Shown one piece after another: positions 18,180 to 61,872 of a stretch of DNA of 64,000 bases. How positions within the stretch are numbered: the first letter of the stretch is position 1; each line of letters begins with the position of its first letter. The notes under the pieces were generated by a model that saw only the letters and a program-made list of their open reading frames with translations, did not search any database and was not told where the DNA came from. Position numbers and translations under genes: made by a program. The DNA is from Paramacrobiotus metropolitanus. Its lineage: Eukaryota > Tardigrada > Eutardigrada > Parachela > Macrobiotidae. The DNA lies in contig NW_026570263.1 in the NCBI RefSeq assembly GCF_019649055.1, positions 62,001-126,000 on the forward strand. The letters run 5' to 3'.

Positions 18180-18985
18180 GGCGTTTACAACCAAGTAAAT
18201 GGTTTGATGAAAAACACGAGAAAGGAGAAATAAAATGGCTCTTACCGCTTTTTCAGTTTGTCCACGGACCTTTTAAAACCGGATTCATTTTTTTATCCCT
18301 TCCGCCCCATTCAAGTTTTCGATGGTGAATTAAAAGTGTTAATAGCAAATAGTATGCTTAATATTTCCCTGATCGCAAATCATCTTGGAGACTTCAGGAG
18401 TTTGAGTAAAAATTTTTATACTCGAGACACCAAATTTTGTCTTATTCAGCCTTCTCGCTCCTATGAATTCAAGATTCTTTTCATCAATAAAAAGAACATT
18501 TTATGCGCAGTTATGCGCATCTAAAATACTAATGAACTTAAACTTACAGCGAGGACAATAATTTTTTTTCATGAAATTTAGACTTTTTCATCGTCTGGAA
18601 GTAGGGCGGCTTTATGGGGTTTGCTCCTAGTCATCGATAGTTTCTGTTTTCCCAGAAAAACAGTATGTGTAATTTCTTTTGTTTATTAACTGAGATTAAA
18701 AGAGAGAAGAATACTTAACTTGTGGACGCTTAGTGCGTTATAAAAAGTTTAGAGGATATTTGAGAAAAATTACAAAAACGGTCCTGGTAAAATCCGTGGC
18801 AAAAGTGCAAAAAGTGGTCGTAAGTTTTTTTGGTAATACTTTTCCATTTGATTGTACTTGAACTAAGTTATATTTTTCCTAAGTTCCTTAGTAAATGGCA
18901 TTTATATCTGTATGGATAATGAGAGCTAAAGGCATTTATTTGTGCTGGGAGATACAAAATAGGGAAACTTACTTTTGGAGCGTCC
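18180..18985. other. Intergenic, AT-rich, no gene seen
   Basis: It holds only short frames, without splice-linked exons or family motifs. It is bounded by the end of the SLC6 duplication and the 9-bp satellite. Confidence 0.5.
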
Positions 18986-18986
18986 T

Positions 18987-19250
18987 TTGTAATTCTTGTA
19001 ATTCTTGTAATTCTTGTAATTCTTGTAATTCTTTTAATTCTTTTAATTCTTTTAATTCTTTTAATTCTTTTAATTCTTTTAATTCTTTTAATTCTTTTAA
19101 TTCTTTTAATTCTTTTAATTCTTTTAATTCTTTTAATTCTTTTAATTCTTTTAATTCTTTTAATTCTTTTAATTCTTTTAATTCTTTTAATTCTTTTAAT
19201 TCTTTTAATTCTTTTAATTCTTTCAATTCTTTTAATTCTTTTCATTCTTG
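18987..19250. repeat. 9-bp tandem repeat, about 29 units
   Basis: The unit is ttcttttaa. The first four or so units read ttcttgtaa, and there are single-base variants at the far end. Because 9 is a multiple of 3, every frame stays open and gives long fake proteins (N-S-F repeats on plus, I-K-R and K-E-L repeats on minus). It is not a gene. Confidence 0.97.
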
Positions 19251-19940
19251 TATTTTTATCCTTCATATTCTTACAATTTTTAGTTTTATAATATTTTATT
19301 GAAATAACGTGAAAAAAATAAGATGCATGTATATAAGTCACTACGCTTTTTAAAATTAAATAAGTGCATCAAACAAAAAAGCCACGCTCCCGAAACTCTT
19401 TTACTAATGTAGATTTCCTTATACTAGTTCAAATTTGCAGCATTATCATCCAGATCGACAAGTTTATGCATCTGCCCGTGCAGCGTAGAGTAATGTCTTT
19501 CACCGCTCGCACACAGTTTGTTTAGTAGTCAAAGTCCACACCGGCTATGTTATTGTCAGCGACTCCCATGAATGGGTTGTCTGCTCCAGAAATGTAATAA
19601 TACTAGTAATAATGAGGGTGTCAGTTGTCGACGCCAGAGTCTGAGTGGTCAAAACGATCTTTTCTCCGTGAAGAAGTAATTAAAAGGCAATTAAGACTGT
19701 GCTAACTAGCATCCGGCATGGACACAGAGAGACGGGCCCGACTCCCAAAAGTGACAATCGGTAGGCCGCAAGTGCACATGCACATGCGATAGGTACAATG
19801 AGAGATGTGTTACAGGAGAAGGAAGAATTTGGTCTGCCCAGTGTCTAGCTGCCCACGGTTGGTCCATCGCGGGTGCAGTTTTTCGCAAGGCGAAAAAGGT
19901 AAGCACCTCTCTCAGACGCTGGACGCGATGCCTCTTAGTC

Positions 19941-31902: not shown

Positions 31903-32441
31903 TCACAACCAAAACACAATGCTAAACAGCACTAAACCGAGGTGTACAAAAAACCCCGCAAATATTCGCTGCCCGCCGCCCCGCTGGTGCTGCGGCATGG
32001 GGACCCCTTCGCCCTCCCCGCCCCCGGGCAGATGACTCTCCCCGCCCTCCTCCTGCTGCACCTGATCACAGTGGTCGTAGTACAGCAGGAATCCCGACTG
32101 CCAGTAGCACTCCCCGCCTTTTTGACACAGATACATCAGCCCGTTGTTGTCCAGCACCAGCTGCGAGTTGCCGTACTTCCGGCCGACCTTCCAGGGCTCG
32201 GCGAACCACAGAGCGCGGTCGGTGGAGACGTAGACGGTCCCGTACACCACCAGGCTGCCGTTGCGCTCCAGGGTGACGTTGCCGGCGGTGCCGGGATAGC
32301 TGTAGCTGCTGAACACCGGGGTTTCGTCGCATTTGCGCAGGACCAGGAAGTTCCCGTCGGGTTGCAGGCGCGCCTTGTACTCTCCGTTGGCCGACTCCAC
32401 CGTGTCGCCGACTTTGAGGGATTCACCGACGCGTAACACCA
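31903..32441 (-). CDS. Bulb-type (B-lectin) domain protein with GPI-like tail, 3' exon
   Basis: The exon starts at an acceptor (acgttgcag, 32442) and runs 178 codons to the stop at 31903. It encodes a beta-prism B-lectin domain: RVGESLKVGD, then LQPDGNFLVL (the Q-D-N mannose-site pattern), LERNGSLVVYG, the W of ALWFAEPW, LVLDNNGLMYL and CYWQSG. Such domains bind mannose in plants and in some fish and invertebrates. A low-complexity Glu/Gly linker leads to a terminal hydrophobic run (IFAGFFVHLGLVLFSIVFWL) with no residues after it, as in GPI-anchor signals. The first exon (signal peptide, phase 1) was not found. The acceptor and phase match the next lectin gene, so the two are tandem paralogues. 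Confidence 0.8.
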
Positions 32442-33547
32442 CTGCAACGTTGCGTTGTTATGCTTGTTTATAAAACACGGAATTAAACAAACAAAAACTG
32501 TTAATAGGTGGCTGTATGCAGGTATAATTTTATTTTGGTATACACATACTTTTAATTGATGGGATAGTTTTTAGCATAATCGTGGTAATATTATTTTATA
32601 ATGGATTTAAGATAATATGAACAACCGATGTACTTCTACTTGATTTTATGAACGTATACACTGCATAAGGAAAGTATACACTGCATCTTCTTTACGGATT
32701 TATACGGTACATACAAAATTTTCAGCTTTGTATGTTTCCGTTTTTACAGACCATGTTTTGCTCATATGTATTACTGTCATCGAACAAAGGATGGACTATA
32801 TCTAAACTGAAAACAGACAGGCATTTTAGTTCTTTGTTTGTGTATTGACGTTTGCAATGGTACCGAATAAAGAGTCGAATCGTAGTATAGTGGCACTAGA
32901 CAAAATAAATACAACTTCAGCTTGTCTGGTTTGCTCGTTGATTTGACTGTTGTTAAAAAGTTTTGGTTATGCCAGGTCTTTTTTTCGAAACACGAAGTAG
33001 ATTTCAAAGTATGCATTTTCGAATAACCAAAACTGGAGCTCTACAAACGTTAATTTACCAGGACACCACATAGGTCCCCTCCAAATTCAGAAAACTTTCG
33101 TTTTTTTTGTAAAATGGTAGCGCAATATCGTAGTATGCTTAAAAAAATAGTTTCATCTGCCATGGTCAAGGGGGCGTGGCCAGTCAACAATTTAAAGTTT
33201 GCATTTATCACATACTAATAATGATACTATGCAATGCAATGAGTACAAGTTATTCGTATTTATTTTTATAATAAGTAATTTTTTACTGCAGCACCGTGGA
33301 CTTTTGCAGGTGTCAAGTGGTAAGTCCACTTGGTGCAGTAGTAATACAAGTCGAATGGGATGGTAACACAAATCAGAATGTTAAAATTAGCGGGCCATGA
33401 GTGATAGCTTTTACGTTTCTACTTTTCCGGCTTGTCGTTACTTCCCCTGTACAGTTTACTGACAGCTTATCAGCAAAGATTATAGTTTATTTTAAAAAAT
33501 ATAAAAAAACTCGAAATTGCTTCTACAGGTTTAAAATTTGTATTATT

Positions 33548-34871
33548 TTAATTAGTTATCCCCGGCGCAGACATTTTTCTACTGTACACAATTAAAATGG
33601 TGCCTATACCTTGGGAGGCGTTGCCGTAGTCGTTCTCGCAGGTGCGCACCCGCACCCCGCTGGACTGCCAGTAGCAGCGCGCCTTGGCCCTGGCACACAG
33701 CTCCAGGAAGCCGTTATCCGTAAGTCGCAGCTCGGCATCGGAATAATCCGTGATGGCCGGACTGGAGCCGGAGCTCCACAGCACCGCGTTACGCCGACTG
33801 CCGTGACTGCCGGTCATAATCAGCTGGCCGTTGGTGGCGTCCAGCTCCAGCCGGCTGACGGTGGTGCTGGAGTCGTTGAAGGTGGCGAAGGTCGGCTTCC
33901 CGCTGCACTGGTCGTACACCGCTAGCCGGCCGCTCTCCAGGGCGAAACGGTAGCCGCTGTTCGGGGAGTACTTGTCGGCCGGTTTGTCGCTGCGCGCGTT
34001 GATCGACAGCGATTCACCCGGCTCCATAATCACTGTATGTAATAATATAATTACACTCGCATATACAAATAACCATAATACTAACAAAAAATGAGGAAAA
34101 AAGCATATGACATCATAGTTCAATTTTTTACTTCCTCACTTTTTGTTTTTATTATGGTTATTCGCTCGTGTTGGTTCATTTGCTCATGAGTCTGATAAGA
34201 TGTTTGCTGCGGAAAACTGGCCTTCTAACATTGGGGTGCGTGAGTGGCTGTTTACCCCCAAAGATGCGCAGTAATTCCGAACCTGGAATGCGGTTTCTTT
34301 AACTACACTAATAACTCTGTCTTGACTGGCTTGTGCTAATAAATACCGTTATTAACTTTTTGTTATTATTATTATTATAGCGTGTAAACCATGTACCGAA
34401 TGTTGCAGTTTGATTTTATAGTTTCATGGAATATGCGCATAATTTCACCTTTGTCTTAACCAAAACCGTTCTTCTTTTTATAATTTTTTTTGGAGATTTT
34501 CAACGTTATAATGCATTAGACAATTACTAAATAATTTTTCGATTTACACAAAAAAATTTAATAAATAAACAGCAACATTAATCAACAAGTACAACTAAAT
34601 TTTTAGAGCTTAGGCAAAAAGATCAATAAATAAGCAGAGTAATTATTATACAAGCACTGAGCTAATTTTTTAATATTCAGATAGTGAAAAATAGACCAAT
34701 GGACAAGAATCAATAAGTACTTTTACTTCTATTTGGCTCACATATACAGGGCTGGCTGTCGTTTTTACCTGAAAATTTCTTAGGTTCGGCGACATAAACC
34801 GAATGTACAATCCCCGCGAGGAATAGGCTACATATTAACGTAATAGTTGCGAAGAACCGAAACGTCGACAT
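33548..34871 (-). CDS. Second bulb-type (B-lectin) domain protein
   Basis: Exon 1 (34871-34769) encodes a clear signal peptide (MSTFRFFATITLICSLFLAG) and ends at a gtaaaa donor in phase 1. Exon 2 begins at 34032 and holds the domain: EPGESLSINA, YRFALESGRLAVYDQC, LELDATNGQLIMTG, VLWSSGSS, AELRLTDNGFLELC and CYWQSSG. The Q-x-D-x-N sites are less well kept than in the neighbouring lectin, so sugar binding may differ. After ENDYGNASQ a gtatag donor is possible at 33609; without splicing the frame ends at 33548 (195 residues). The true C-terminus is unsettled, and no downstream exon was found. Confidence 0.78.
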
Positions 34872-35334: not shown

Positions 35335-36397
35335 TCAGTATCCACCGCCCTGGAGGAACGGAGCCGGCTCCAAAGGTCGCCGATGGCGATCGCGTCCGCG
35401 CTGCGGAAAATTCACTTCCTGGACGGTTCCCTCGTTCGTGCCGATCTCGCCAATATCGGCCAACGCTACAGTAGCGCAAAAAATAAAAAACAAACAGAGA
35501 ATTTTTTAGCGGTAGAATTAATGTCATTCTTGCGTTTGCGCCACACCGATAATCAAATCGTCGACGAAGAGCGGCGTATTAATAGGCGTTCTGGTTGAAC
35601 GGTTAGACACTGAGGCGGTATTTTCAGTTTTTTTACATACGAGTACTGTATCGATGCGATCGCAGTTACTACTGATTTAATGCCGGTTAAACAGTCTTTC
35701 AATACGAGCCTGCAACATTGTGTATCATGTAGAAGACCGTAGTGACGTGGTATGGCTTGGCTTCCCTGAATCTGGTCCACCAAATATCAGCTCACTATAG
35801 ACATGCTTGGTATATGTAGGTTTGTCTCGAAATTCTTTTTTAGTTCCCGCTATAGCACGCAGTGAAAAAGGCAAAGCAGAGCACTAAAAGGTGACGTACC
35901 TCCTAAGATTAGGAGTGACACTAAGGATTGTGGATGCTTTCTGCAGCGTTTTACAGTTAATCAGGAAATAAATTACCGGGCTGTACAAACGGAGATACAG
36001 GGCGCACAGTACAGGGTAGATGGTCCAAAAAAGTCCAGCAAGAAGTCATTTTTACTGTTTAAGTACAATCAGGGCAGGGTTGCAGGGACGCGTACCGAAC
36101 TCGATATCTAATTTGTATCGGTTATACGTACGAAAAATACATTTTTCTCGAATAAGCCTCACCTGCAGCCTGATCGTCATCGCGGTAGAATCGGGAGGGC
36201 CGGTTATAATCCCCATATGGCCGGAAGCGATTGTGTGGGGACACCTGGAACGTTACCGACTGGATGTTGCCTTCGTTCTCGCCCAGATAGTCGATATCGT
36301 TGAGGTCCATGCTCAACGGCGAACTGCTACTACCACCGGCAGCGCCGGGCGTCGGAAAGTACGGCAAAATCAGCGTCACTACAACCGTATATTTCAT
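35335..36397 (-). CDS. IG-motif secreted protein, paralogue 1
   Basis: Exons 36397-36163 and 35465-35335 join in phase to 121 residues. The N-terminus has a hydrophobic leader (MKYTVVVTLILPYF). The first exon holds a diverged unit (YLGENEGNIQSVTF). The second begins with the family motif LADIGEIGTNEG, then VQEVNFPQRGRDRHRRP. The same layout (a motif D-I-G-x-I-G-x-N-x-G, then [I/V]-x-x-[Y/V]-N-[F/Y]-x-x-R, in a last exon entered in phase 1) is found in the two genes upstream. No known domain was recognised. It is likely a secreted, basic, Gly/Asn-containing protein. The start lies 62 bp downstream of the stop of paralogue 2. Confidence 0.75.
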
Positions 36398-36458
36398 TTT
36401 ATATATGTACCATACGTCTATTCACAAAACTACCAGCGACCGTTCAAATGAAAGTCAG

Positions 36459-38361
36459 CTAACCGAAGCGTCGTCCGGCATCGATGCCAATCTGCCCGAT
36501 GCCCGGCGTCGCGGGCGGCTGCCCGATGTAGTTCTGCGAGATATCGCCGGTGTTGACGCCGATGGCTCCGATATCGGCCAGCGCTGCTGCAAAATGCACC
36601 GATGTGAACAGTAAAAAAATAGTATAACTGATAATTATGCGATGAAAATTATTTCCATTTCCACGTACGTATTCTCTAGTGTTGGGTAGTAAAAGTCCTT
36701 GCCAATATACTTATTTTTACTATCTGCTTTTGGAAGTTTACTTATTTTTACTTACTATTTAAAATTTCTCGGGACTTTTACTTACTTTTACTTACTATTT
36801 CAATTTTTCCAAGGACATTTACTTACTAAATTAAAGTAAATTTACTAAATAAATGTAATTAGGACTGAAAGTGTCGAATTGCGTTAGTTTCAAAGCGCTG
36901 AAAAGTACTGAAAATGGCGCAGAAAATTTTCTTATGCATTAATAGAGCTATACAGCCATGCAGGCGCATACTGAAAAGTAAATACTGCTGCTTTTTAGGG
37001 CGGTAGGCTGTCAGCCAACTACTGCGCACACTCACTTTACCTGCGAGAGGCGGCGGCTAACACGCCAATTTTACATAACGCTTGATAAAACGAATTAGTA
37101 AATAATTTAGTAATTGATTTTTATTTAGTCAACGCTAAACCTTAATATTTACTTACTTTTTACTATTCCGGCAGCACATTTACTTACTTTTACTTATTTT
37201 GTTTCCAAAACCTTACTATTTGCTAGACTTTTAATATTAGGCGGACTTTTACTAAGTAAATGGCCGTTATTTAATTTTATTTAGTAGCACAACACTAGTA
37301 TTCTCATAAAATTAAAAGTTTAATGTCAAATTCTGAAGCACCAATTTATTAAACAAATAATGAAATATCAAAATTCTAAAAAATTATATAAAAACAAAAT
37401 AAAAATATATAAAATATAAAAAAGTAAATAATATTATTAAATATAAATTCAGCCAGAATATTTGTGACCTATTTGCTGTGCCATGCTGCTGCATCAAAAT
37501 CGTCTTGTCACGAAAATCTGCGCACAGTCAGATAATGAAAGCGATGTGTGCCATTGTTTCTAATATTTGCCGAATCATTTTTTTGGCTGTGCCGGGATCG
37601 TTTTAACGTTTTAAGATAAGTAAAAGAATACCATCGCTGGGTATGTCGGCATCGTCCAGCACCCCCACGGCGTCTTCATCCCGGAAACGGCCGCGACCGC
37701 GCTCGGGGAATTTGACCATCTGCAGACAGCCGGTGCGCTGGCGATCCACGAAGTTGACGGTGTTGTACCGTCCACTGCCGTCCTTGAAGTTGACATCCTG
37801 AATACAGCCGCCCGGAGGGTTCTCCGGCAAAAAGGCAATATCGCCGCCTGCGTCGCGGAGAAATCACAAAATAATTAATCAGCCTCATGCTATACAGGTG
37901 TTTAATTTTCCACAATTTTATTTAATTCAAATATGATATTTAATTTTTTGCTCACGTATTTATATGCAGCTCACTTTAAATAAAACCACGTCTTTTAATA
38001 AAAAATAGTATTTAATAATAAATAATATTTATTAACGAAATAACAATTATTATTTTAATAAAAGTAAAATTAATAATTAATTACGAGAAGACTAATTAGT
38101 TTTTGTCAAAAGCGATTTCAATAAATATGCACTTTAATTTTTTACTGAGGAATAATTCATTCTAAATTAATAAATATCAGGTGAAACATAATATGCATGC
38201 AGTGTTTCACACTTCACGATACAAGCCAGAAAGAACACCAGCAAAAATTATTGGAAAAATACCGTTTACAGCAGCACTTGCCGTTGCTTACCCGCGATGG
38301 CGCGACCGTCACCCACGGCGAACAGCCAACCTAATACACCGGTGATAAATAACGCTCGCAT
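36459..38361 (-). CDS. IG-motif secreted protein, paralogue 2
   Basis: Exons 38361-38292, 37847-37632 and 36586-36459 join in phase to 137 residues. The signal peptide is MRALFITGVLGWLFAVGDG. Exon 2 holds two related halves, GGCIQDVNFKDGSGR and TGCLQMVKFPERGRGR, each with one Cys. Exon 3 begins LADIGAIGVNTG, then PGIGQIGIDAGRRFG to the stop. The halves of exon 2 resemble the Q-[D/E]-V-N-F part of the repeat in the sister genes. The intron between exons 2 and 3 carries a hAT-type MITE. Function is unknown. Confidence 0.75.
36677..37297. mobile_element. Non-autonomous hAT-type element (MITE)
   Basis: The 621-bp element starts tagtgttgggtagtaaaagt and ends ...caacacta. The termini are inverted (tagtgttg), and perfect 8-bp direct repeats GTATTCTC flank it at 36669-36676 and 37298-37305. 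An 8-bp duplication and a TAGTGTTG-type end are typical of the hAT superfamily. The inside is AT-rich with repeated ttacttactttt words and no transposase frame. It is inserted in an intron of IG-motif paralogue 2. Confidence 0.9.
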
Positions 38362-39117
38362 CTTTCCGGCGCCGACGTCTAAAAATCTCAGGAATCTTTA
38401 AAGAAAATCAAGGGCTTTATTAGAGCATTATTAAACTGATAAACTACTTTTGTGGTTGTACAAGTTACAAATCGGTGACTGACGACCGACCAAAAAATAA
38501 AATATAAATCAAGAGTTGCGCTACCAGGGCAATTTTTTGTACAGCATCCGGCTTTCCCTGTGTGCACTGTGCATTTGTATATCGCAACCGAAGTGTATCC
38601 GCAACTCGCACTGATGTAACAAGTCGCAAGGTCATCGGGTCACACACGCTCATGATCCGTTTTGCAGTACGGTTTTCCAGATGACCCTGATATGGTTTTT
38701 CTCCACAGTGCAATCTCATTCAGCGCCGATTCCATCCGGAATCGATCAAATCTTCTGTCCTGATTTCGTGTTATTTTTAATTTGTTAATTTTGGTGACCT
38801 TTGCTAATTTGAATTTACCGGTAATGTGGAACGCAGAATCACGAATCAGTCATGATCTTCTTTTTCTTCTGCATTTCCCTGACAAACAAACGCTTGCGCT
38901 TTGCATTTTCGTTGCTGCTCATATACGCTTTAATATAACATCATTTTTATATAAGTATTACTAATAAAAGTTTTGGGAAAACTTCCGAGACCAGACAATC
39001 AAGGCTTAAAAGCCGCTTAATGCTTAATAAGTTAATATAGTCCCAAACAAATAAACGGCGAATTCTTGTGGATCGCGTTGCCAGTGCCGCGGAGCAGTCC
39101 GTGGTGGAGACGCGCGA
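38362..39117. other. Intergenic between IG-motif paralogues 2 and 3
   Basis: No exon seen. The promoter of paralogue 2 is expected near 38400-38500. Confidence 0.5.
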
Positions 39118-40472
39118 TCACCAAATGGGATAGCGATGACGGCGATGGCCGTATCGCTGCTTGAAGTTGTACTCCGTGATCTGGCCGTTGTTAATCCCGA
39201 TCTCCCCGATGTCGTTCTGCTGAGCGGGCTGGTCGTCGCTGCTAGCTACAAAAGATATCGTAAAGATCACACCGGCATTTCTTAAGCACAGACTGTATAT
39301 TGCTAGAATTATGTTCGAATTTTCATGATCTTTATGGCAGACAACTTTACAGTAATAATCTGATTGTATGGGTAGTTATTCCGTTCTCGTTAAATCGTAA
39401 TGTGAGTGTTGTATAAAGCAGTTGGCTTACCGGCCACGTCATCGGCGTCGTAATAGGGCCGCGGACCGTAGATGCCGGGATAGCCGGCGCTGCGGTATTT
39501 CTGCTTGTAGTTGTACTCCTTGATCAGACCGTTGTTAATCCCGATCGTCCCGATATCGTCCACTGCAGTTAAATACATACGCTTTTAATTAACCGGCACA
39601 GAATCAATTGATACTGATGGCAGGCGTTGGATAATTAATTATCGGTAATGCGTAATTGAAAAATTTGTGGTTATTATTTCAAATATGTATCTGATGTATA
39701 TTATGTACTTGTCAAATTAATAGCATTATATATATAAAAATCTACTCATGTTTAACTAATGTTAAAGATGTTTAACGCATCAACTAACCCATCGAATTTT
39801 CATCCGCTTGGTTACCATCCCCGGAAACGCTTTCATCATCTGCAAATAAAAGAAATTATTCTTACGCATGCGCTGCAGCATTTCGAGCTGAAACTCATGT
39901 TAATTTAAATGGCACTTTCGTTGACGATACACTTTGTGGTAAACAGGTACACGTGTAAACAGCGGTATTATTTCAACTCCTTTTTTATTTCCGTTTTTTG
40001 GGTTTTTAAATTTGTTATAATTTTTTTTAATTTTTTAATGCCGGCTAGTTATTTTGAATTTAGTGAATTTAGTTATGTTGAATTTAGTGGCTTACTTTGT
40101 GTCACGATGAGAATTCGTGGTCTATCCGCCACATCAGTATTGCTATCAATGTCAATACCTGCAAACACCATACAGAAAAATTATGTTAAATTCGGATCTC
40201 TTTATAGTCGGATCTTTTAAACGAGATACGATTTTTTTTTTTATATGTATCAAAGTTTTATATTAGAAAAATTACGATATGAAGAGATCTTTGAATTTGC
40301 AGCAAAACAGACAACACGCTAGAAACGAAGACGAAACAACACTTGCAACAATTCACTGACCGGCGTCTCCCGGGAGGAAAGTCTGCGAAACACGGCCGGG
40401 ATTGAAACCGATCACGCCGATCTCGGCGCTGACGCCGACCAACACCATCAAACACGCTAAAGACCCCAACAT
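39118..40472 (-). CDS. IG-motif secreted protein, paralogue 3
   Basis: Five exons join in phase to 161 residues: 40472-40361, 40158-40096, 39839-39789, 39562-39431 and 39245-39118. The signal peptide is MLGSLACLMVLVGVSA. Directly after the likely cleavage site comes EIGVIGFNPGRVSQ. An acidic spacer (IDIDSNTDVADRP, DDESVSGDGNQADEN) follows, then two full units: DDIGTIGINNGLIKEYNYKQ with KYRS, and NDIGEIGINNGQITEYNFKQ with RYGHRRHRYPIW. A Tyr/Pro/Gly run (GYPGIYGPRPYYD) lies between them. The clean repeat units define the family consensus best. Function is unknown; Tyr, Gly and Arg content would suit a structural extracellular protein. Confidence 0.78.
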
Positions 40473-51843: not shown

Positions 51844-54418
51844 ATGTGGACAACAATCTACGGTTCCTTGTTCTCCACGCTTCTCTTGCTATTCCATCCA
51901 GGTAGGTTGTCGCTTCATCTCCAGACAATATTCGGCATTACTGAACTGCATAGGATTTAATTTGTGCGCTAATAATTCTTGTTATTCGTTAATCATTCCT
52001 TAACCGTGGATGCAGGTGGCGCTCGGGCACAAAATGAGACAGCGGCAGCAACGGAGAATTTTCCCCTCCCGACCCAGCTCAACGCCACCGCCAATGTGAC
52101 GCTCCCGACGGAGCACAGCGCGCCGGTCATCGCGGTCGATGGCACCGTGCAAAACGTGCAGAACGCCTCCATTCCCGATGTCGTCATTATGACGGTAGGG
52201 TGGCTTTTGGCAAAAACAGCTATTCGCATACTTAGATATTTGTAAATATACCTTGTTTACCTGATAAAAGAATGTAACAGCAACAACTCGTGATTAATTT
52301 CCTAAATTCAAAAAAGCATAAACCTGCCTAAAATAAATGTAAATTTTATGAGCGTACCTACGTTTATGTTTTCAATTCATTTACTTTTATTAGTTTTTAA
52401 TATTTTTATTAGTTAGTATTTTTTTAGGTCTATTTATTTCAACTTATTTTCATTTTGTTGTTAAATAAGTTCATTATTTTGCTTATTTATTTGTTCTGCC
52501 TCGTTATTTGTTTCATTTTCTCATATATTCTGTTCGCTTATTTATTTGTTATTATTTTTGTTTTGCCCACCTGGGTAACTTGACTAATTTTTATATATTC
52601 TTAAAATCATTCTTACGTACTGAGAATTTATACTGTAAGTGCGTTTCAGTAAAGAAATCAAGAGAAAAATCGTACCAACCCATATACTGTATCAACTGTG
52701 TTTTCTTCCAGCGGTCGACCCTGTTGGGAAGCGTAGCGCAGTGGCTGCAAGCCGTGATGACGGTGGTGTGCGGCGGGGAGTCTGCCCCGGCGGTGGCCTT
52801 CTTCCACTGCATCAACCACGCCCCCTCCATCCCGGCGCTGTGGGCGGCCATGGGGCTCAACAGCACCTCCATCCAGGTGCAGACCATCCAGACCACGCAG
52901 ATCTCGGGACAGAACGCCTCGGTGGACGCTAATTCCCTGCTGACCCTCCTCAGCAGCAACGTCACGCAGCTCAACGACCTCCTGCAGCAGATCACCGCCC
53001 ATCTCGGAGATTTCTGCCTCAACGTCCCGCCGCTGATGCAGTGCGTTAGACCGTTCTTGCAGGCATGTATTACCAGCACCGGATTGCGGGTGGACCAGTT
53101 CGCGCGGAATGGGCTAATGAACGGAAAGGTGCCGGCGCCGGAAGTGGTCAATAAGGAAATCGCTAGTGTTACCAATGAAACGGTGGTTGCAAACACTGGT
53201 AGCATGAATGTTACCGAAGTAAGTGCCGGTAATGCTAACGTTACCGAAGCAAGTACCGTTACTGCCAACGTTACCGAGGTAACCACCGGTAACACCACCG
53301 TTACTGAGGTAACCGCCGCTAACGCCAACGTTACCGAAGCCCCACAGCTGCAGAATGCCACCGCTGTCCAAGCCAACGTTGCAGTGAACAGCAGCGCCCA
53401 GGAAATAGCCGGTAACAGCAACGCGACGATCAATGCCGATCCGGTGTTCAACCAGATCAATGTAACCGAAACGAATATCACCGGTCAAGCTCGAGGTATT
53501 TTGCAAAAAGTTATTAAGTTTACCATGTGACCTTTCACTTCCGGTTGCAGAATTGGATGTGGAAACTATTAAGCTGATTCAGGCTCAAGCGGCCGGTAAA
53601 AATTAACCTTCTTTTCTATTAATTCACCTTTTTATTTAATGGCAAAAATTAATAAAATTGATGTTGTTAGCGCCGGTTTCGAAAGTGTGGTTCAACGCCA
53701 ATTTCCCGCTGTCTCATTCGGCCGACGACGTCGCCCAGTTCGTGCAGGCCTCATTGGAGCACCTGTGCCAGAACCAATCGGAGAAACTGACCAGTAAAGC
53801 CGGGTCACGTGTCCGCGCAAGAAAGTTGCTGTAATTTAGTTTAAATTTTATAATTGCAGCGGTTGTGTCCAACGTGGCGTGTATCTTCAACGCCATCAGC
53901 ATGCCGTCATGCAGCAACGAGATCCTCGATTTGAATCAAGCGCAGGCCAGCCAGGAAAACGTCTGCAAGTATGCCGAACTCACGCTTCAATTCCAAATTA
54001 AACAAAACAAATCAAATGAAACTAAACAGAATTTTTATCAATTTTAAAAAAATTCAGAATAAATAAATAATTACCGGTAATCGTTTAGTACAGTATCGCT
54101 GTATCTGTATATGGTTGTACCCAATCAGTATGCAGATACACACATTGCTTCGGAAATTTCTGCTATCTGCTGAAACTTTAATTAAGCTTTGCTGTTTTAA
54201 TTTTCCTTTTTTTAAAACTTAATACGTCTATTTGTTTTTATAATAATTTTTTATTTTTGCGTCTATTTTTTTACAGAGCGGCGATGGAGTACGGATCGTG
54301 CTACCTGTCTTCCATCAACAGCGTCTGCAACAATCCCGCCCTGACCGGCATCTTCACCGACCTGGGCGTGGCCTACTTTGGCGCCACCGAATGCGCCAAA
54401 AATCACACCACCCACTAA
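51844..54418 (+). CDS. Secreted cysteine-containing glycoprotein with NVTE repeats
   Basis: Seven exons in phase give 479 residues: 51844-51901, 52016-52194, 52712-53495, 53551-53595, 53671-53793, 53860-53968 and 54277-54418. The signal peptide is MWTTIYGSLFSTLLLLFHP. An Asn/Thr-rich region comes first, then a cysteine-containing helical region (TVVCGG, FFHCINHAP, HLGDFCLNVPPLMQCV, LQACITS). Next is a run of 10-residue units N-V-T-E-V/A-x-x-x-x-A at about residues 245-290, in which most units carry an N-glycosylation sequon. A second cysteine region closes it (EHLCQN, NVACIFNAISMPSCS, ENVCK, GSCYLSSINSVCNN). No TM segment is present. It is a heavily N-glycosylated secreted protein of no recognised family. 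AATAAA is at 54669. Confidence 0.8.
53210..53341 (+). repeat. 30-bp coding minisatellite, about 4.4 units
   Basis: Units begin gttaccgaa or gttaccgag and encode V-T-E plus seven residues ending A-N. The 30-bp period keeps the frame. Units differ mostly at synonymous or Ala/Val/Thr positions. Confidence 0.9.
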
Positions 54419-55048: not shown

Positions 55049-58000
55049 ATGCTAATACTCTGGGCTTCTCTCGTAATCGTTCAAGCGAGGACCGGGTAAG
55101 AATGTGCCGTTGACTAATACATGAATCTCGTAATCTGCCGGAAGTAATGACTGTGTAAAAACACACATGCGGGTACCTGCCTTGCAGTTGGGGGGAAATC
55201 CCGCCGGCCGGCACGGTGCCCATCAGCGGGGAGGCGGCGCGGGAGCTGCCGCAGTTCGAAGCCACGCCCAAGCACCGCAGTATCCTCCTCATCCCGGAGT
55301 GCTTCGATGCGCGCCAGAAATGGGCGGGCTGCCAGAGTATCGGGGATATCCGGCACCAGGGCCTGTGCGGCACCTGCTGGGTAAGTGAGCCTTCGAATAA
55401 AACCCGTGCGCCGGGAATTTTCCTTGCGCTAATCGTTCCTAATGAGATATCAGCTAAATCACGCTTTTATTAAATTTTGTTTCAGCGTTTAAGTTTGGAG
55501 ATTGTGCGTGGTAATGCTATGAGTGTATGATACACAGTCCCTTCAAAGTTCTCATGTAAACTGGGACAAACTTTTATTTGATGGTGTTTACTGAGGGGTA
55601 CTCGCTGATGTACATATTATTGTGAATAAAGTAGGAAGGATTACATTTATTTCCTGATTTATTTCGTTAATTTTAATTATATATTGTACATACGGACAAT
55701 ATTTGTAGACGAGTTATATCCTTCGCTGATAGCAACCATTTTTTATAGCATTGATAGTCAGTCGCACAGTGCGCTAAAATCTTAAGAAGATTTAATAATG
55801 CAGCCGGTGTAGATCAGTGGTAAGACGGACGGCTACAGACGCAGCTGCCACGGGTCCCAGTATGCTTGAGCAGAAACGAATTGGTTCGAGTCCCGTCATC
55901 GGCAGAATTTATATTTCTTCAGTATCTTCGGTACATTCAGAAATTCATATTTATATTCCAGTTATAAAATCAGCAGTGTTCTCCTGTCGCAGGCGTCCGC
56001 CCTTTTAAGAGCATCGATTTTCATTATATAAACGAATATTTTACGGGGTTGCCGGTTGCAGGCGGTCGCCGCGGCCAGCGTCATCTCCGACCGGATCTGC
56101 ATCACTTCCGGTCAGCGTAACCAAACCTACGTCTCGGCCATCAACCTGGCATCGTGCACGGTAGCGGGACGGAGTCCGCAGCAAAAGTACGCGTTACCTT
56201 CGCTTCCATAATACGTATCGATACAGCTAACTGGCGTCGTAGTTGCATCGGCGGTGATGATGCGGCCAACGCGTACAAACAAGCGACACTGTACGGCGCG
56301 GTGACCGGCGGGAACTACCAGAGCAGCTACGGATGCCAGCCGTACTCCCTCTCGCCCACCGACCAACTGGGGTTGTCCTGCCAGAAAACCTGCAGCAACG
56401 CCGGATACGATAGACCCTACGACGACGATCTGATCTTTGGTAGGCAGACTGTATTTTTAAAAAATTAATTTGAACGTTTCATTAAGCATTACTACTTTAT
56501 TATACGGACGACAGTGGACACGTTCTGGACGACGTACAGCAACACGCTCTCACAGGAGCAGAACGCGGCCAATGTCCACCAGATGCAGATGGACATTATC
56601 GCCAACGGGCCCATCACGGCGGCCATTACGGCCTTCAGCGATCTGGAAACCTGGACCAGCGATAAAGGTGCCCTGGTTTTGTACAAAAACTAACTCAAAA
56701 TACATATACGAACTATTGGTCCATTATTTCAAAAACTTGTATGAGTAAAAGAACTAAACATAAAAATTTTAAAGCATATATATTGTATGCTTATATAAAA
56801 ATTTATTTTGGGAAAATTAGGAGCTTATCGTGGACCCTCCCCGGAGGCGCTGAACAAAGCCGGCCACGCCATCCGCATCATCGGCTGGTGCAAAGACCAG
56901 CAGCGCGTCCCCTACTGGCTGGTGGCCAATTCCTGGGGCACCGAGAAGGGCGACCGGGGCTTCTTCTGGATCGAGCGCGGCCGCAACGTCATCGGCATCG
57001 AGGACCACATCTCGGCGCCCATCATCCGGCAGCCCAACAACTGCCCTTCCCTGTGCGATCAACCTCTGGACCAGCTGATCCGCCTGCATCCCTACGACCG
57101 GCAATCGCCGGTCTACGCCTTCCAGGGCACCTGCGTGACGGAGGTGCGGGTGGAAGGTGGACGGATCGTGCCGGTGGCGGCGCCGGCGCCCATTGGGACG
57201 GTGCTGGTGGGCGGGCCCCGGGCGCCGGTGACGCACTGGGCGGAGGCGAAGAATCAGGGCGAGTTGTGGTTTATCGGGGTGCGTTAGTTGCTTTATTTAT
57301 TCTTATATTTTATAATCATTTTAATACCAATGCTATTCAGTTATTTCGATGTTTTTGCGCAAATTTGCAATTGTCCTCCTGTTTATTTATATAAAGTATG
57401 CCAGTTTTTTCTTAGTTTCCATTTTATTGTTTTCCTGATTTGTACTTAAACAATCCATTACAGTTATTTCCTAGTTTTTTTTATATTTAATTCATTTTGT
57501 TCCTTTGGCTAATTTTTCGTAATTGTATTAAAATACTCCTATTGAATTTTCCAATAACATCGTTATGTTTATTTTCAGTGTATGTATAGCCTTTTTAAAA
57601 TATTATTAAAATTAGAGACAATCTCTGGAAAAATTATTTAAAAACGTTTCTTTCCGGAAATAAAAAATTAAAATTTTTCGGATAGTTTTTTTAATCTGTT
57701 CTTGTTTAGCCGAGCGGATTTGCCAGCGTCTGCGGTGACACGCCGGGTTCCAGCAAGAAAAGCTGCCGCGCCGGCAACGTCCATCCGGACGCCACCGCCG
57801 GCCCGCAGACCCTCAACATGGCCACACGCGACAAATACGTCTATTGTAAGTTTCCGCATCCACCCTTTCTTTTCTACAAAAACAGGTCAGGAAAATACCG
57901 GTGTAATTGCAGATACGGATGAAGCCAGGCGCCAGCAGATCTACCAGTTCATGGGCGGCATGTACCGGCCGCAGGCCATCAACATCAAGGATGCTTTGGC

Positions 58001-58877: not shown

Positions 58878-61872
58878 ATGGCACCGGTAGTGAAGTGTTT
58901 ACTCTTCGCCGTAATTGCGGTGAATTACGTGTACGTGGAATTAATTGATGCTGTTGATCACAAGAAGGGATATGATGGTTAAATGAAGTGTTTTGCATCT
59001 GCAGTGTCGCCAAGATTCCTCCGCCGGGTATCAAGAAACTGAGCGATACGCAGTATGAGAGCCTGCCGAAGTTCGAGCCGAACAGCCGGCATCGCGCCGT
59101 CAAAGCGATACCTGATTGTTTCGACGCGCGGAAACGCTGGCCGAAGTGCAAGAGTATCGGGGATATCCGCAATCAGGGAATGTGCGGTACCTGTTGGGTA
59201 AGCAGTGCATAACATCCTGATTCTTCCTAATTTAGCGGCCCGCCCCGAACCTCACAAAGCAGACTGTTACAGCAATACTACATAGATAAAAATTTCATTG
59301 TTATGTTATTCGAAATACCAATTATTGTAACAAGTAAGAGTGAAGAACCAGCAAGCTACCCAACCTCGGCAGTATTTCTTTACTTCGCTATTTATGGAAA
59401 TACAGATAGCGCAGAGTTCCATTAGCAGAGGATCATGACCGCCATTGAGCCATAATCAGAATGCGCGTTGTCTTGCAGGCGGTAGCCAGTTCCGCCGTCC
59501 TCTCGGATCGCATCTGTATCGCCTCGGGAGAAAAGGATCAGACGTACATTTCCGCTGAGCACATTGCCGGCTGTACAGATCTGAAGCGCAATGGATACGA
59601 AAAGTGCGGGCCGAGTACTGAAATATTATAGTATTCGACAACAGCATGCTGACCTTAAAATAAGGACGCTATGCCGCTGCCGATCACTGTTATGATAAGG
59701 CTAGCTGCCAATTATTGGCGGATACCAGGCGCTGTTTACTATTGGCAATTTCTCTTTACTTCAAAGTTAACTGCGACACTGGCCACATTAAATGCGCTTT
59801 ATTTAGCTGTCAGGGAGGCAACGACAACGCCAACGCCTACCGGCAGGTAGCCACCTTCGGCGTGGTCAGCGGTGGCAACTACAACAGCAAATCGGGATGC
59901 ATGCCGTATCCGCTGCGCCCGCTGCCCGACTCGGAGGCCATCGACATCACCTGCCGCGATCAGTGCACCAACACCGGCTTCAAGCAGAGCTTCGAGAAGG
60001 ACAAACACTACAGTAAACATTATTGATATTAAAATTATAATTTACGTTTCCTAGCGTAGCATTTAAATAAATTTTGTATCATGTAGTCGATGCATTCTGG
60101 GCGTCGTACATCGGGCAGACGCCGCTGAACGGCATGCAGAACACCCCGGCCGCGGAGACCGCCAAGAACGTGGAGCTGATGAAGATGGACATTATGACCA
60201 ACGGACCCATCACCGCTGCCATCGTCATGTACACCGACTTCGAACCCTGGAAGCCCGAACAAGGTGCGGTTACTTATCAGTTATCACACTAAAGGTGATG
60301 TTACTATGAGTGGTCTTACCCGGTTAGTACTTAGTTTGCTTTAAAGAAGAGTAAATCTGCACCAATAACGTTGCAGTCTAGTAGCATTTCCTTAAATACT
60401 CAGTAAACAGTCAGGTGACTAAATTTCTGAGTAAGAACTTCTCCTCCAATGTTGGTGTCAGACAAGAGGCTGGGTGTTCAACATGAACTCATTAATTTCT
60501 ACAGGTTACTCTTCCCTTAATGAGACAGCCACAATATAGCGAACTTCATCCGCATTAATATACCGGCTGTCTTGGCCAAATAAAATTGACCAAATTTTTA
60601 ATCGACCGTTGCAGGTGCTTACCGAGGCCCGGGTGCCGGCGCCCAAGGCCCCATCGGCGGACACGCCGTCCGCATCATCGGTTGGTGCAAGGACCCCAAC
60701 GGCGTGCCCTACTGGCTGATCGCCAACTCCTGGGGCACCGACAAGGGCGACAAGGGTACCTACTGGATCGAGATGGGGAAGAACGTCATCGGGGTGGAGG
60801 ACATGGTGTCGGCGCCCATCATTAAGCAGCCCAACACCTGCCCGACGTCCCTCTGCGAGCAGGCCTTCGACCAGGTCATCCGGCTGCATCCCAACGACCC
60901 CAGTTCTGCCGTGTTCGTCTTCCAGGGCAACTGCACCCAGGAGGTCAAGGTCAGCGCCGACGGGAAGATCACGCCGGTCGGGGCACCGGGACCCATTGCC
61001 AGTACGTTCATGGGGGGTCCGAATTACGGGCCGATCCGCTTCTGGGTGGAGGCGCAGAACCCGGCTGAATTGTGGATCGCCAGTGTATGAGTATATTGCA
61101 ACGAATGAATGATTTTTCAGGCGGATTGTAATAGATTTTTGCGCGATAGGATAACGGAAAAGCCGGAGTGTGCTTCGACACGCCACGCGCCGGTAAAAAA
61201 GGCTGCCGTGTGGGTAAATTCAACGTCAACACCATGGACCAGAACGCTGGACCGATGACCATCACCGCTGGCGGCGACAAATATATTTATTGTAATTATG
61301 ATTTACTTATAAATAAAAAAACTTTTCTAATAATTATATACACTTTCTGGATGCATCTTCATTAGTTTTGTCGTATAAGTAAATGTTGACCCCTTTATAT
61401 AAGAATACAAGTATGTGCAGGAGATTTACAGATATTGGTGCGAAGAAAACTGGATTGTAACGCATGGGTAAAATGTATCATAAAACATACGCAACGTTTA
61501 TTTTTTAAAAGTTTTTATTGAATTTATTTATTTGTTATGTACGTCAGCTGGTTTGTCGTTGCAGATACGGATGCCGGTCGCGCCAAGCAGATCTACAAAT
61601 TCCCGGGACGCAGTCCGAGCGGTCAGGGCATCGACATCGGCGACGCCGTCAGCAGTAAATTCAAAAAGGTCACGTCCATCCTGGACATCGACGGCAGCAA
61701 GATGCTGGTGTGCGGTGTCGGCATCAAGGGACAGCCGGCCTGCGCCACGCTGGCTTACGATACGTGGAAGGTAAACGTACGACCTTTATTTCGCGCATAC
61801 CCACTGACAAGTGGTTTGTTATTGCAGTTGTCGAATCACAACACGCTGAAGAAAATCGTGACCAAGTGCTGA
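58878..61872 (+). CDS. Cathepsin B-like cysteine peptidase with long C-terminal extension, copy 2
   Basis: Nine exons in phase give 538 residues: 58878-58930, 59005-59197, 59479-59603, 59807-60012, 60087-60263, 60615-61084, 61150-61291, 61565-61770 and 61828-61872. Exons 2, 3, 8 and 9 are exactly as long as in copy 1 (193, 125, 206 and 45 nt), so this is a tandem duplicate. The signal is MAPVVKCLLFAVIAVN. The peptidase residues are NQGMCGTCW (Cys81), GGHAVRIIGW (His268) and IANSWGTDKGDKGTYWI (Asn289). The occluding loop lacks the His-His pair but keeps EKDKHY. The extension reads VIRLHPNDPSSAVFVFQGNC, AGVCFDTPRAG and SKMLVCGVGIKGQPACATL, parallel to copy 1. The first donor (gtacgt at 58931) is preferred because only it gives the phase that exon 2 needs. 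AATAAA is at 62070. Confidence 0.9.

What the first reader, a model, noticed from the sequence alone, without database searches (positions are those of the whole stretch)
35335..40472. Unrecognised secreted protein family with an IGxIGxNxG repeat, three tandem genes
Seen directly: three minus-strand genes each start with a signal peptide and share units of the form [D/E]-I-G-x-I-G-x-[N/D]-x-G, usually followed by [I/V]-x-x-[Y/V]-N-[F/Y] and a basic run. Examples are DIGEIGTNEG, DIGAIGVNTG, DIGTIGINNG, DIGEIGINNG and EIGVIGFNPG. In all three the last exon is entered in phase 1 and begins one or more residues before the motif. I know of no described domain with this pattern. Inference: a lineage-specific extracellular, perhaps structural, family that grew by tandem duplication.
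Basis: partly seen in the sequence, partly recalled or inferred. Interest (0 to 1): 0.85.

Follow-up and report, generated by a model that had tools for sequence, protein, structure and literature searches.

The report
Orphan secreted repeat-protein gene cluster
Two or three neighbouring animal genes encode small, apparently secreted proteins built from an unrecognised repeated unit that was found nowhere else in the same genome; it looks like a small home-grown protein family, perhaps for building an outer layer, but its job is unproven.

Summary
Three minus-strand gene models at 35335-40472 carry five exact [DE]IGxIGx[ND]xG units, against none in 200 simulated windows. Codon use and GC3 support eight of ten exons; A2 and A3 are doubtful. 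All seven introns, not only the last, are phase 1. In some units the conserved part runs on as a second half (GTVQEVNFPQRGRDRHR-like). Four diverged units bring the count to nine, of uneven support. Protein and pattern searches of the own genome find the motif only here; two weak off-locus hits lack it. Pfam, NCBIfam, PHROGs and PDB give no credible match. Other animals could not be searched, so 'lineage-specific' is untested. B and C lie 61 bp apart without a polyA signal and may not be separate genes. Best reading: a secreted, mostly disordered polyampholyte whose units act as sticky modules in an extracellular layer (confidence 0.35). A hAT-like MITE enlarges one intron.

The parts
40361..40472 (-). 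Gene A exon 1: signal peptide by eye (MLGSLACLMVLVGVSA) and unit EIGVIGFNPGRVSQTF
   Evidence: leave-one-out HMM only 7.6 bits
40096..40158 (-). Gene A exon 2 (doubtful), acidic linker, no unit
   Evidence: splice sites fit, but GC3 0.35 and in-frame codon score -0.58; could be skipped in frame
39789..39839 (-). Gene A exon 3 (doubtful), acidic linker, no unit
   Evidence: splice sites fit, GC3 0.44, in-frame codon score -0.2
39431..39562 (-). Gene A exon 4: unit DIGTIGINNGLIKEYNYKQKY
   Evidence: 85% DNA identity to exon 5 over 68 bp
39118..39245 (-). Gene A exon 5 (last): unit DIGEIGINNGQITEYNFKQRYGHRRHRYPIW, stop
38292..38361 (-). Gene B exon 1: signal peptide by eye
37632..37847 (-). Gene B exon 2: two diverged units, each with one Cys at the same place (GGCIQDVNF, TGCLQMVKFPERGRGRFR)
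   Evidence: B2b to C exon 2 score 52 and B2a to B2b score 38, each 0 of 2000 shuffles; B2b and B2a to A4 and A5 not significant; HMM gives 3.2 bits for the first and does not list the second
36459..36586 (-). Gene B exon 3 (last): unit DIGAIGVNTGDISQNY and short possible unit GIGQIGIDAG, stop
36677..37297 (-). hAT-like MITE inserted in intron 2 of gene B, not part of the protein
   Evidence: 8-bp duplication GAGAATAC on both sides, terminal TAGTGTTG; 47 matching pieces in the genome, itself included
36163..36397 (-). Gene C exon 1: signal peptide by eye and diverged unit DIDYLGENEGNIQSVTF, basic then acidic tail
   Evidence: C1 to C2 score 55, 0 of 2000 shuffles; only 2.7 bits in the leave-one-out HMM
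35335..35465 (-). Gene C exon 2 (last): unit DIGEIGTNEGTVQEVNFPQRGRDRHRRP, stop

Best explanation
A small family of secreted modular proteins, encoded by two or three tandem genes. The module is about 28 residues: DIGxIGxNxG, then an I/V-x-x-x-V/Y-x-F-like stretch, then in most cases a basic Arg/Tyr/Pro tail, with acidic segments between modules. Shown: the motif repeats far beyond chance, lies in frames that look coding, sits mostly on exons entered through phase-1 introns, and occurs at one locus of this genome. Inferred: the proteins are exported, stay largely disordered, and use the modules as short beta-hairpin-like stickers turning at NxG. Opposite charge blocks pair copies so that they assemble in an extracellular layer such as cuticle, eggshell or gland secretion.
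For: Hydrophobic N-termini with plausible cleavage sites (by eye). Two of three mature proteins (A and C) fall on the disordered side of the charge-hydropathy line. The fraction of charged residues is 0.24-0.25 in all three, with acidic linkers and basic tails; charge segregation exceeds shuffles in A (0.0014) and is borderline in C (0.053). Exons A4 and A5 are 85% identical over 68 bp. One Cys stands at the same place in each of two B units, which could cross-link. Secreted disordered families fill the C. elegans pharyngeal cuticle (PMC9629831, passages only). A chitin-binding CBM_14 exon and two weakly lectin-like frames lie on the lower-coordinate side.
Against: B falls on the folded side and its charges are not segregated (0.33). 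The proteins look ordinary in composition rather than low-complexity (by eye), and no gene has more than about four units. No expression, localisation or structure evidence exists. The neighbours also include GPCR, sulfate-transporter and papain-like genes, so the neighbourhood is mixed and says little.
Confidence: 0.35

Rival explanations
1. Small folded secreted domain: the unit is one half or one blade of a compact beta domain that binds a ligand (lectin-like or inhibitor-like), and pairs of units fold together.
For: Fixed I, G, N, G positions with variable neighbours look like a turn and core rather than a loose tail. Each gene model carries two or more units. B has one Cys per unit in exon 2 and lies on the folded side of the charge-hydropathy line.
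Against: A and C lie on the disordered side. A profile of the unit finds no credible PDB relative (best E 0.11, an antibody light chain). No structure could be predicted.
Confidence: 0.25
2. Precursor of basic, Arg/Pro/Tyr-rich secreted peptides (antimicrobial or similar): acidic spacers keep basic tails inactive until they are cut out.
For: Basic tails such as KQRYGHRRHRYPIW and RGRDRHRRPLEPAPF follow acidic segments. R-x-x-R sites occur once in A and three times in C. The likeness to insect multi-peptide precursors is recalled, not from a call.
Against: Chains without the first 18 residues are acidic (pI 4.6-4.8). No cleavage site is shared by all three: A has one RR, C one RR, B one GRR, and B has no R-x-x-R. 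The end of B is hardly basic, and the best conserved part is the motif, not the tail.
Confidence: 0.17
3. Neuropeptide precursor with repeated peptides.
For: Signal peptide by eye, repeated short units, and a G-R-R amidation-like site near the end of B.
Against: Dibasic sites are single per gene and do not flank the units, and no G-basic-basic site occurs in A or C. The units are joined to tails that differ between genes.
Confidence: 0.06
4. Gene count wrong: B and C form one transcription unit, or are partly decayed copies; the protein reading stays the same. This can be true together with any of the readings above.
For: Only 61 bp separate B's stop from C's ATG, with no AATAAA or ATTAAA between; the one TATA-like site abuts the ATG.
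Against: C exon 1 starts with its own ATG and a signal-peptide-like stretch; B ends with an in-frame stop. All five B and C exons keep coding-like codon use.
Confidence: 0.3

Closest known systems
C. elegans pharyngeal cuticle disordered families (IDPA, IDPB, IDPC, APPG; PMC9629831, passages seen)
   Same: Secreted families, predicted disordered, proposed to assemble outside the cell.
   Different: No sequence comparison was made; those are described as disordered, low-complexity and prone to phase separation, while this one has a defined 10-residue motif. A working likeness, not membership.
Tardigrade SAHS proteins (PMC11127935, title and start of abstract in the listing only)
   Same: A secreted, tardigrade-specific family; here the tardigrade origin of the window is itself inferred.
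   Different: Direct comparison was not made. No credible match in the profile libraries for any of the three proteins here. A short repeat of this kind is not a feature I recall for SAHS.
Cuticle proteins with a chitin-binding domain, including CBM_14 proteins
   Same: Possibly secreted proteins of an extracellular layer; a CBM_14 exon lies about 9 kb away.
   Different: No Pfam match of any kind in the three proteins up to E 10.

Membership tests
Any Pfam, NCBIfam or PHROGs family | Profile match above the curated or a credible score | tested here: not met
   0 families for 3 of 3 proteins in Pfam and NCBIfam at E up to 10; PHROGs one match at E 0.35, for protein A, none for B and C at E up to 1
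Proteins of solved structure | Profile match in the PDB | tested here: not met
   3 chance-level matches at E up to 10, best E 0.11
Neuropeptide precursors | Peptide copies flanked by dibasic sites, often amidated | tested here: not met
   one RR in A, one in C, one GRR in B, none flanking units regularly
Neuropeptide precursors | Signal peptide | tested here: inconclusive
   hydrophobic N-termini by eye; no predictor available
Secreted disordered matrix proteins | Disorder over most of the mature chain | tested here: inconclusive
   charge-hydropathy only: A and C disordered side, B folded side
Secreted disordered matrix proteins | Location in an extracellular layer | not testable with these tools
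   no expression or proteomic data held
Tardigrade SAHS, CAHS, MAHS | Sequence similarity to named members | not tested
   no member sequence was at hand; whether the profile libraries hold these families was not checked

The most novel reading that the evidence does not exclude
A new self-assembling extracellular module (a roughly 28-residue DIGxIGxNxG hairpin with a basic tail) that arose in one animal lineage and spread only by duplication of exons with phase-1 borders within one locus, serving as a building block of a specialised outer layer.
Probability: 0.2. Interest if true: 0.55.

Novelty: new member of a known kind. Interest (0 to 1): 0.33.

Why it matters
Ecdysozoan, and especially tardigrade, outer layers are poorly known at the protein level (recalled). 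A new secreted module with a clear signature gives a search handle for finding such proteins, and the locus shows repeat growth by exon and gene duplication of different ages in one place. As an orphan family of unknown role it is otherwise ordinary.

Tried and rejected
Chance motif: rejected; 5 strict matches against 0 in 200 simulated windows. A very loose pattern in the same call also hit two unrelated places (31453 on the plus strand, 1018 on the minus strand) and had no control, so it was not used as evidence.

Family dispersed in the genome: not supported. A stricter DNA pattern has 3 matches, all here, control 0. The motif as a DNA pattern has 5 exact matches, all here. At up to one mismatch there are 24 matches, of which 6 are here, against 29 for the reversed control pattern, so the other 18 are background.

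Two weak off-locus hits of protein C (C102 and C355, E 0.30 and 0.44) cover its residues 4-57, that is the signal peptide and the C1 unit. I fetched 301 bases at each. Both align over that stretch; the signal-peptide part and the unit part, each tested apart, had 0 of 2000 shuffles as good, the unit core 16 of 2000, but the motif's G-x-N-x-G is not kept, and the frame belongs to a dispersed family with 10 matches in the genome. With genome-wide E near 0.3-0.4 I take this as chance, though it is not excluded that C exon 1 shares an origin with that family. It also shows that shuffle counts are too kind to pairs picked after a large search. A first script for this stopped half way on a file name.

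Bacterial, archaeal or viral origin: scans with the 161-aa protein A only gave no relative (40 and 8 pattern matches, none confirmed). These are weak tests, because the query is spliced from several exons and B and C were not scanned.

Selection test: dN is below dS in 8 of 12 usable unit pairs. The 4 exceptions all involve C exon 1, and 3 of 15 pairs were saturated; 18 codons are too few to weigh.

Idea that exons B3 and C2 descend from first exons carrying a signal peptide (the DNA before the motif reads FAAALAD and ATVALAD): set aside. No in-frame Met stands between the last stop and the motif, and a T-rich intron end tends to read as hydrophobic residues anyway.

Intron of C as a repeat: its 681-bp interior matched only itself in the genome (that search skips very common words).

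Papers: searches (11 of 11 papers listed; 6 of 6; 1 of 1; 12 of 36; 10 of 13; 0 papers; 2 of 2; 10 of 12; 0 papers) listed nothing whose title or shown start of abstract describes this family. No body was read except passages of two papers, and the motif itself was not searched as text. So I do not claim that it is absent from print.
Full report
What is there. The window is contig C43:62001-126000 of an unnamed 169.8-Mb genome in 533 contigs. Its size fits the 170-Mbp genome reported for the tardigrade Paramacrobiotus metropolitanus (PMC11191345, one introduction passage), but the species was not tested. The minus strand from 40472 to 35335 gives three gene models: A with five exons and 161 aa, B with three exons and 137 aa, C with two exons and 121 aa (A and B junctions also). 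All 7 introns have GT donors and AG acceptors and are phase 1. The internal exons A2, A3, A4 and B2 are therefore phase 1 on both sides and can be duplicated or skipped without changing the frame; the last exons A5, B3 and C2 are entered in phase 1.

Is it more than chance? [DE]IGxIGx[ND]xG occurs five times in six frames of the window, all at this locus. 200 second-order Markov windows gave none, and a looser form, which also finds C1, gave 0.005 per window. The pattern was taken from the finding, so it was chosen after the fact; the genome-wide search answers that objection. Over 169.8 Mb the same motif written as a DNA pattern has 5 exact matches, all five here; a stricter form has 3, with 0 for its reversed control.

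Are the exons coding? Codon scores trained on 1456 codons from ten stretches of the same window that I picked are best in the predicted frame in 10 of 10 exons. They are positive in 8 of 10, while seven intron segments score -0.67 to -1.59 in every frame. The synonymous-only score is best in frame in 8 of 10. GC3 is 0.61-0.81 in those eight exons, and introns have 0.26-0.42 GC. Exons A2 and A3 are the two that fail: scores -0.58 and -0.2, GC3 0.35 and 0.44. Both have lengths divisible by three (63 and 51), so A may really be A1-A4-A5. No transcript data could be consulted.

What the unit is. Six units align with I, G, N and G invariant. In leave-one-out HMM tests A5 (36.8 bits), C2 (33.6), A4 (25.9) and B3 (15.2) exceed 11.3, the best score of 9000 shuffled proteins (6366 gave a score) under the six-unit model. 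A1 (7.6) lies between the 99.9% point (6.5) and that maximum; C1 (2.7) does not stand out. In the same call the six-unit model gives 3.2 bits to the first unit of B exon 2 and 0.8 to GIGQIGIDAG, neither clearly above background (99% point 3.2), and does not list the second unit of B exon 2. Pairwise shuffles of 21 chosen pairs gave 9 with 0 of 2000, 5 between 0.001 and 0.032, and 7 above 0.05: both B exon 2 units against A4 and A5, and the three pairs with A2 or A3. No correction for multiple tests was made. The C2-B2b match (GTVQEVNFPQRGRDRHR against GCLQMVKFPERGRGRFR) shows that the conserved part can run on past the motif. B exon 2 thus seems to hold two degenerate units with a changed or lost DIG half, each with a Cys at the same place. 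Counting GIGQIGIDAG there are nine units: five exact, four diverged and of weaker support.

History. A4 and A5 share 85% of 68 bp, B3 65% over the same stretch, so A4-A5 look like the youngest pair. Searches with A, B, C and a consensus unit found only this locus at convincing scores. Protein C alone also had two weak hits elsewhere (E 0.30, 0.44), which cover its signal peptide and C1 unit. They lie in a dispersed family of reading frames, and the two read lack the motif; I take them as chance, but a shared origin of C exon 1 is not excluded. In this genome the family thus appears to have grown at one place by exon and gene duplication. Searches there are exon by exon and may miss weak matches.

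What is known. Pfam and NCBIfam give nothing for 3 of 3 proteins up to E 10. PHROGs gives one E 0.35 match for A, and the PDB profile search has best E 0.11 to an antibody chain. Bacterial and archaeal and viral contig scans with protein A alone gave none.

How it may work. The proteins start with hydrophobic leaders (by eye). After these come acidic stretches, motifs, and Arg/Tyr/Pro-rich basic tails, with about a quarter of residues charged. A and C fall on the disordered side of the charge-hydropathy line, B on the folded side. Charge segregation is significant in A, borderline in C and absent in B. NxG between two I-rich stretches suggests a hairpin turn; this is my inference, since structure prediction was off. 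I favour a sticky-module matrix protein at 0.35, with a small folded secreted domain at 0.25, a basic-peptide precursor at 0.17 and a neuropeptide precursor at 0.06; the rest is for readings I did not think of.

Surroundings. Only 61 bp lie between B's stop and C's ATG, without a polyA signal, so the count of three genes is uncertain. B intron 2 (1045 bp) holds a 621-bp element with an 8-bp duplication on both sides and 47 matching pieces in the genome, itself included; the best three others are 99-100% identical (40 of 101 candidates scored). I call it a hAT-like MITE from recalled features: the 8-bp duplication, TAGTGTTG ends and small size. Towards lower coordinates lie two weakly lectin-like frames and a CBM_14 exon; towards higher ones a rhodopsin-like GPCR, a sulfate transporter with a STAS domain, and papain-like proteases.

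Verdict. The finding is real and the family has no credible match in the libraries searched. Orphan secreted families are common in animal genomes (recalled), and nothing here yet points to a surprising mechanism, so interest is moderate to low.

Noticed in passing
window 36677-37297 (-): A 621-bp hAT-like MITE (class recalled) with TAGTGTTG ends and an 8-bp target duplication GAGAATAC; 47 matching pieces in the genome, itself included, six other near-full-length ones 97-100% identical, so probably recently mobile.
   Followed up: partly
L001 (C102:329300-329600) and L002 (C355:29080-29380): A dispersed family of reading frames (10 matches, frames of 97-491 aa) whose N-terminal part weakly resembles gene C exon 1; possibly a mobile-element protein.
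   Followed up: partly
window 31906-34135 (-): Two neighbouring frames look like mannose-binding (bulb-type) lectins by eye; Pfam B_lectin is only E 0.021 for one, and the other has a weak uromodulin-like match (E 0.092), both below the curated cut-offs.
   Followed up: partly
window 52469-53527 (+): A long frame with Thr/Asn/Val-rich repeats (NVTEVT and variants), no Pfam match at E up to 0.1.
   Followed up: no
window 18871-19368: A repeat array whose translation has a three-residue period: RIK on the minus strand, NSF or LLI on the plus strand.
   Followed up: no
window 56799-57284 and 60602-61087 (+): Two frames with the C-terminal part of a papain-like protease domain, each followed by about 90 residues without a Pfam match.
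   Followed up: no
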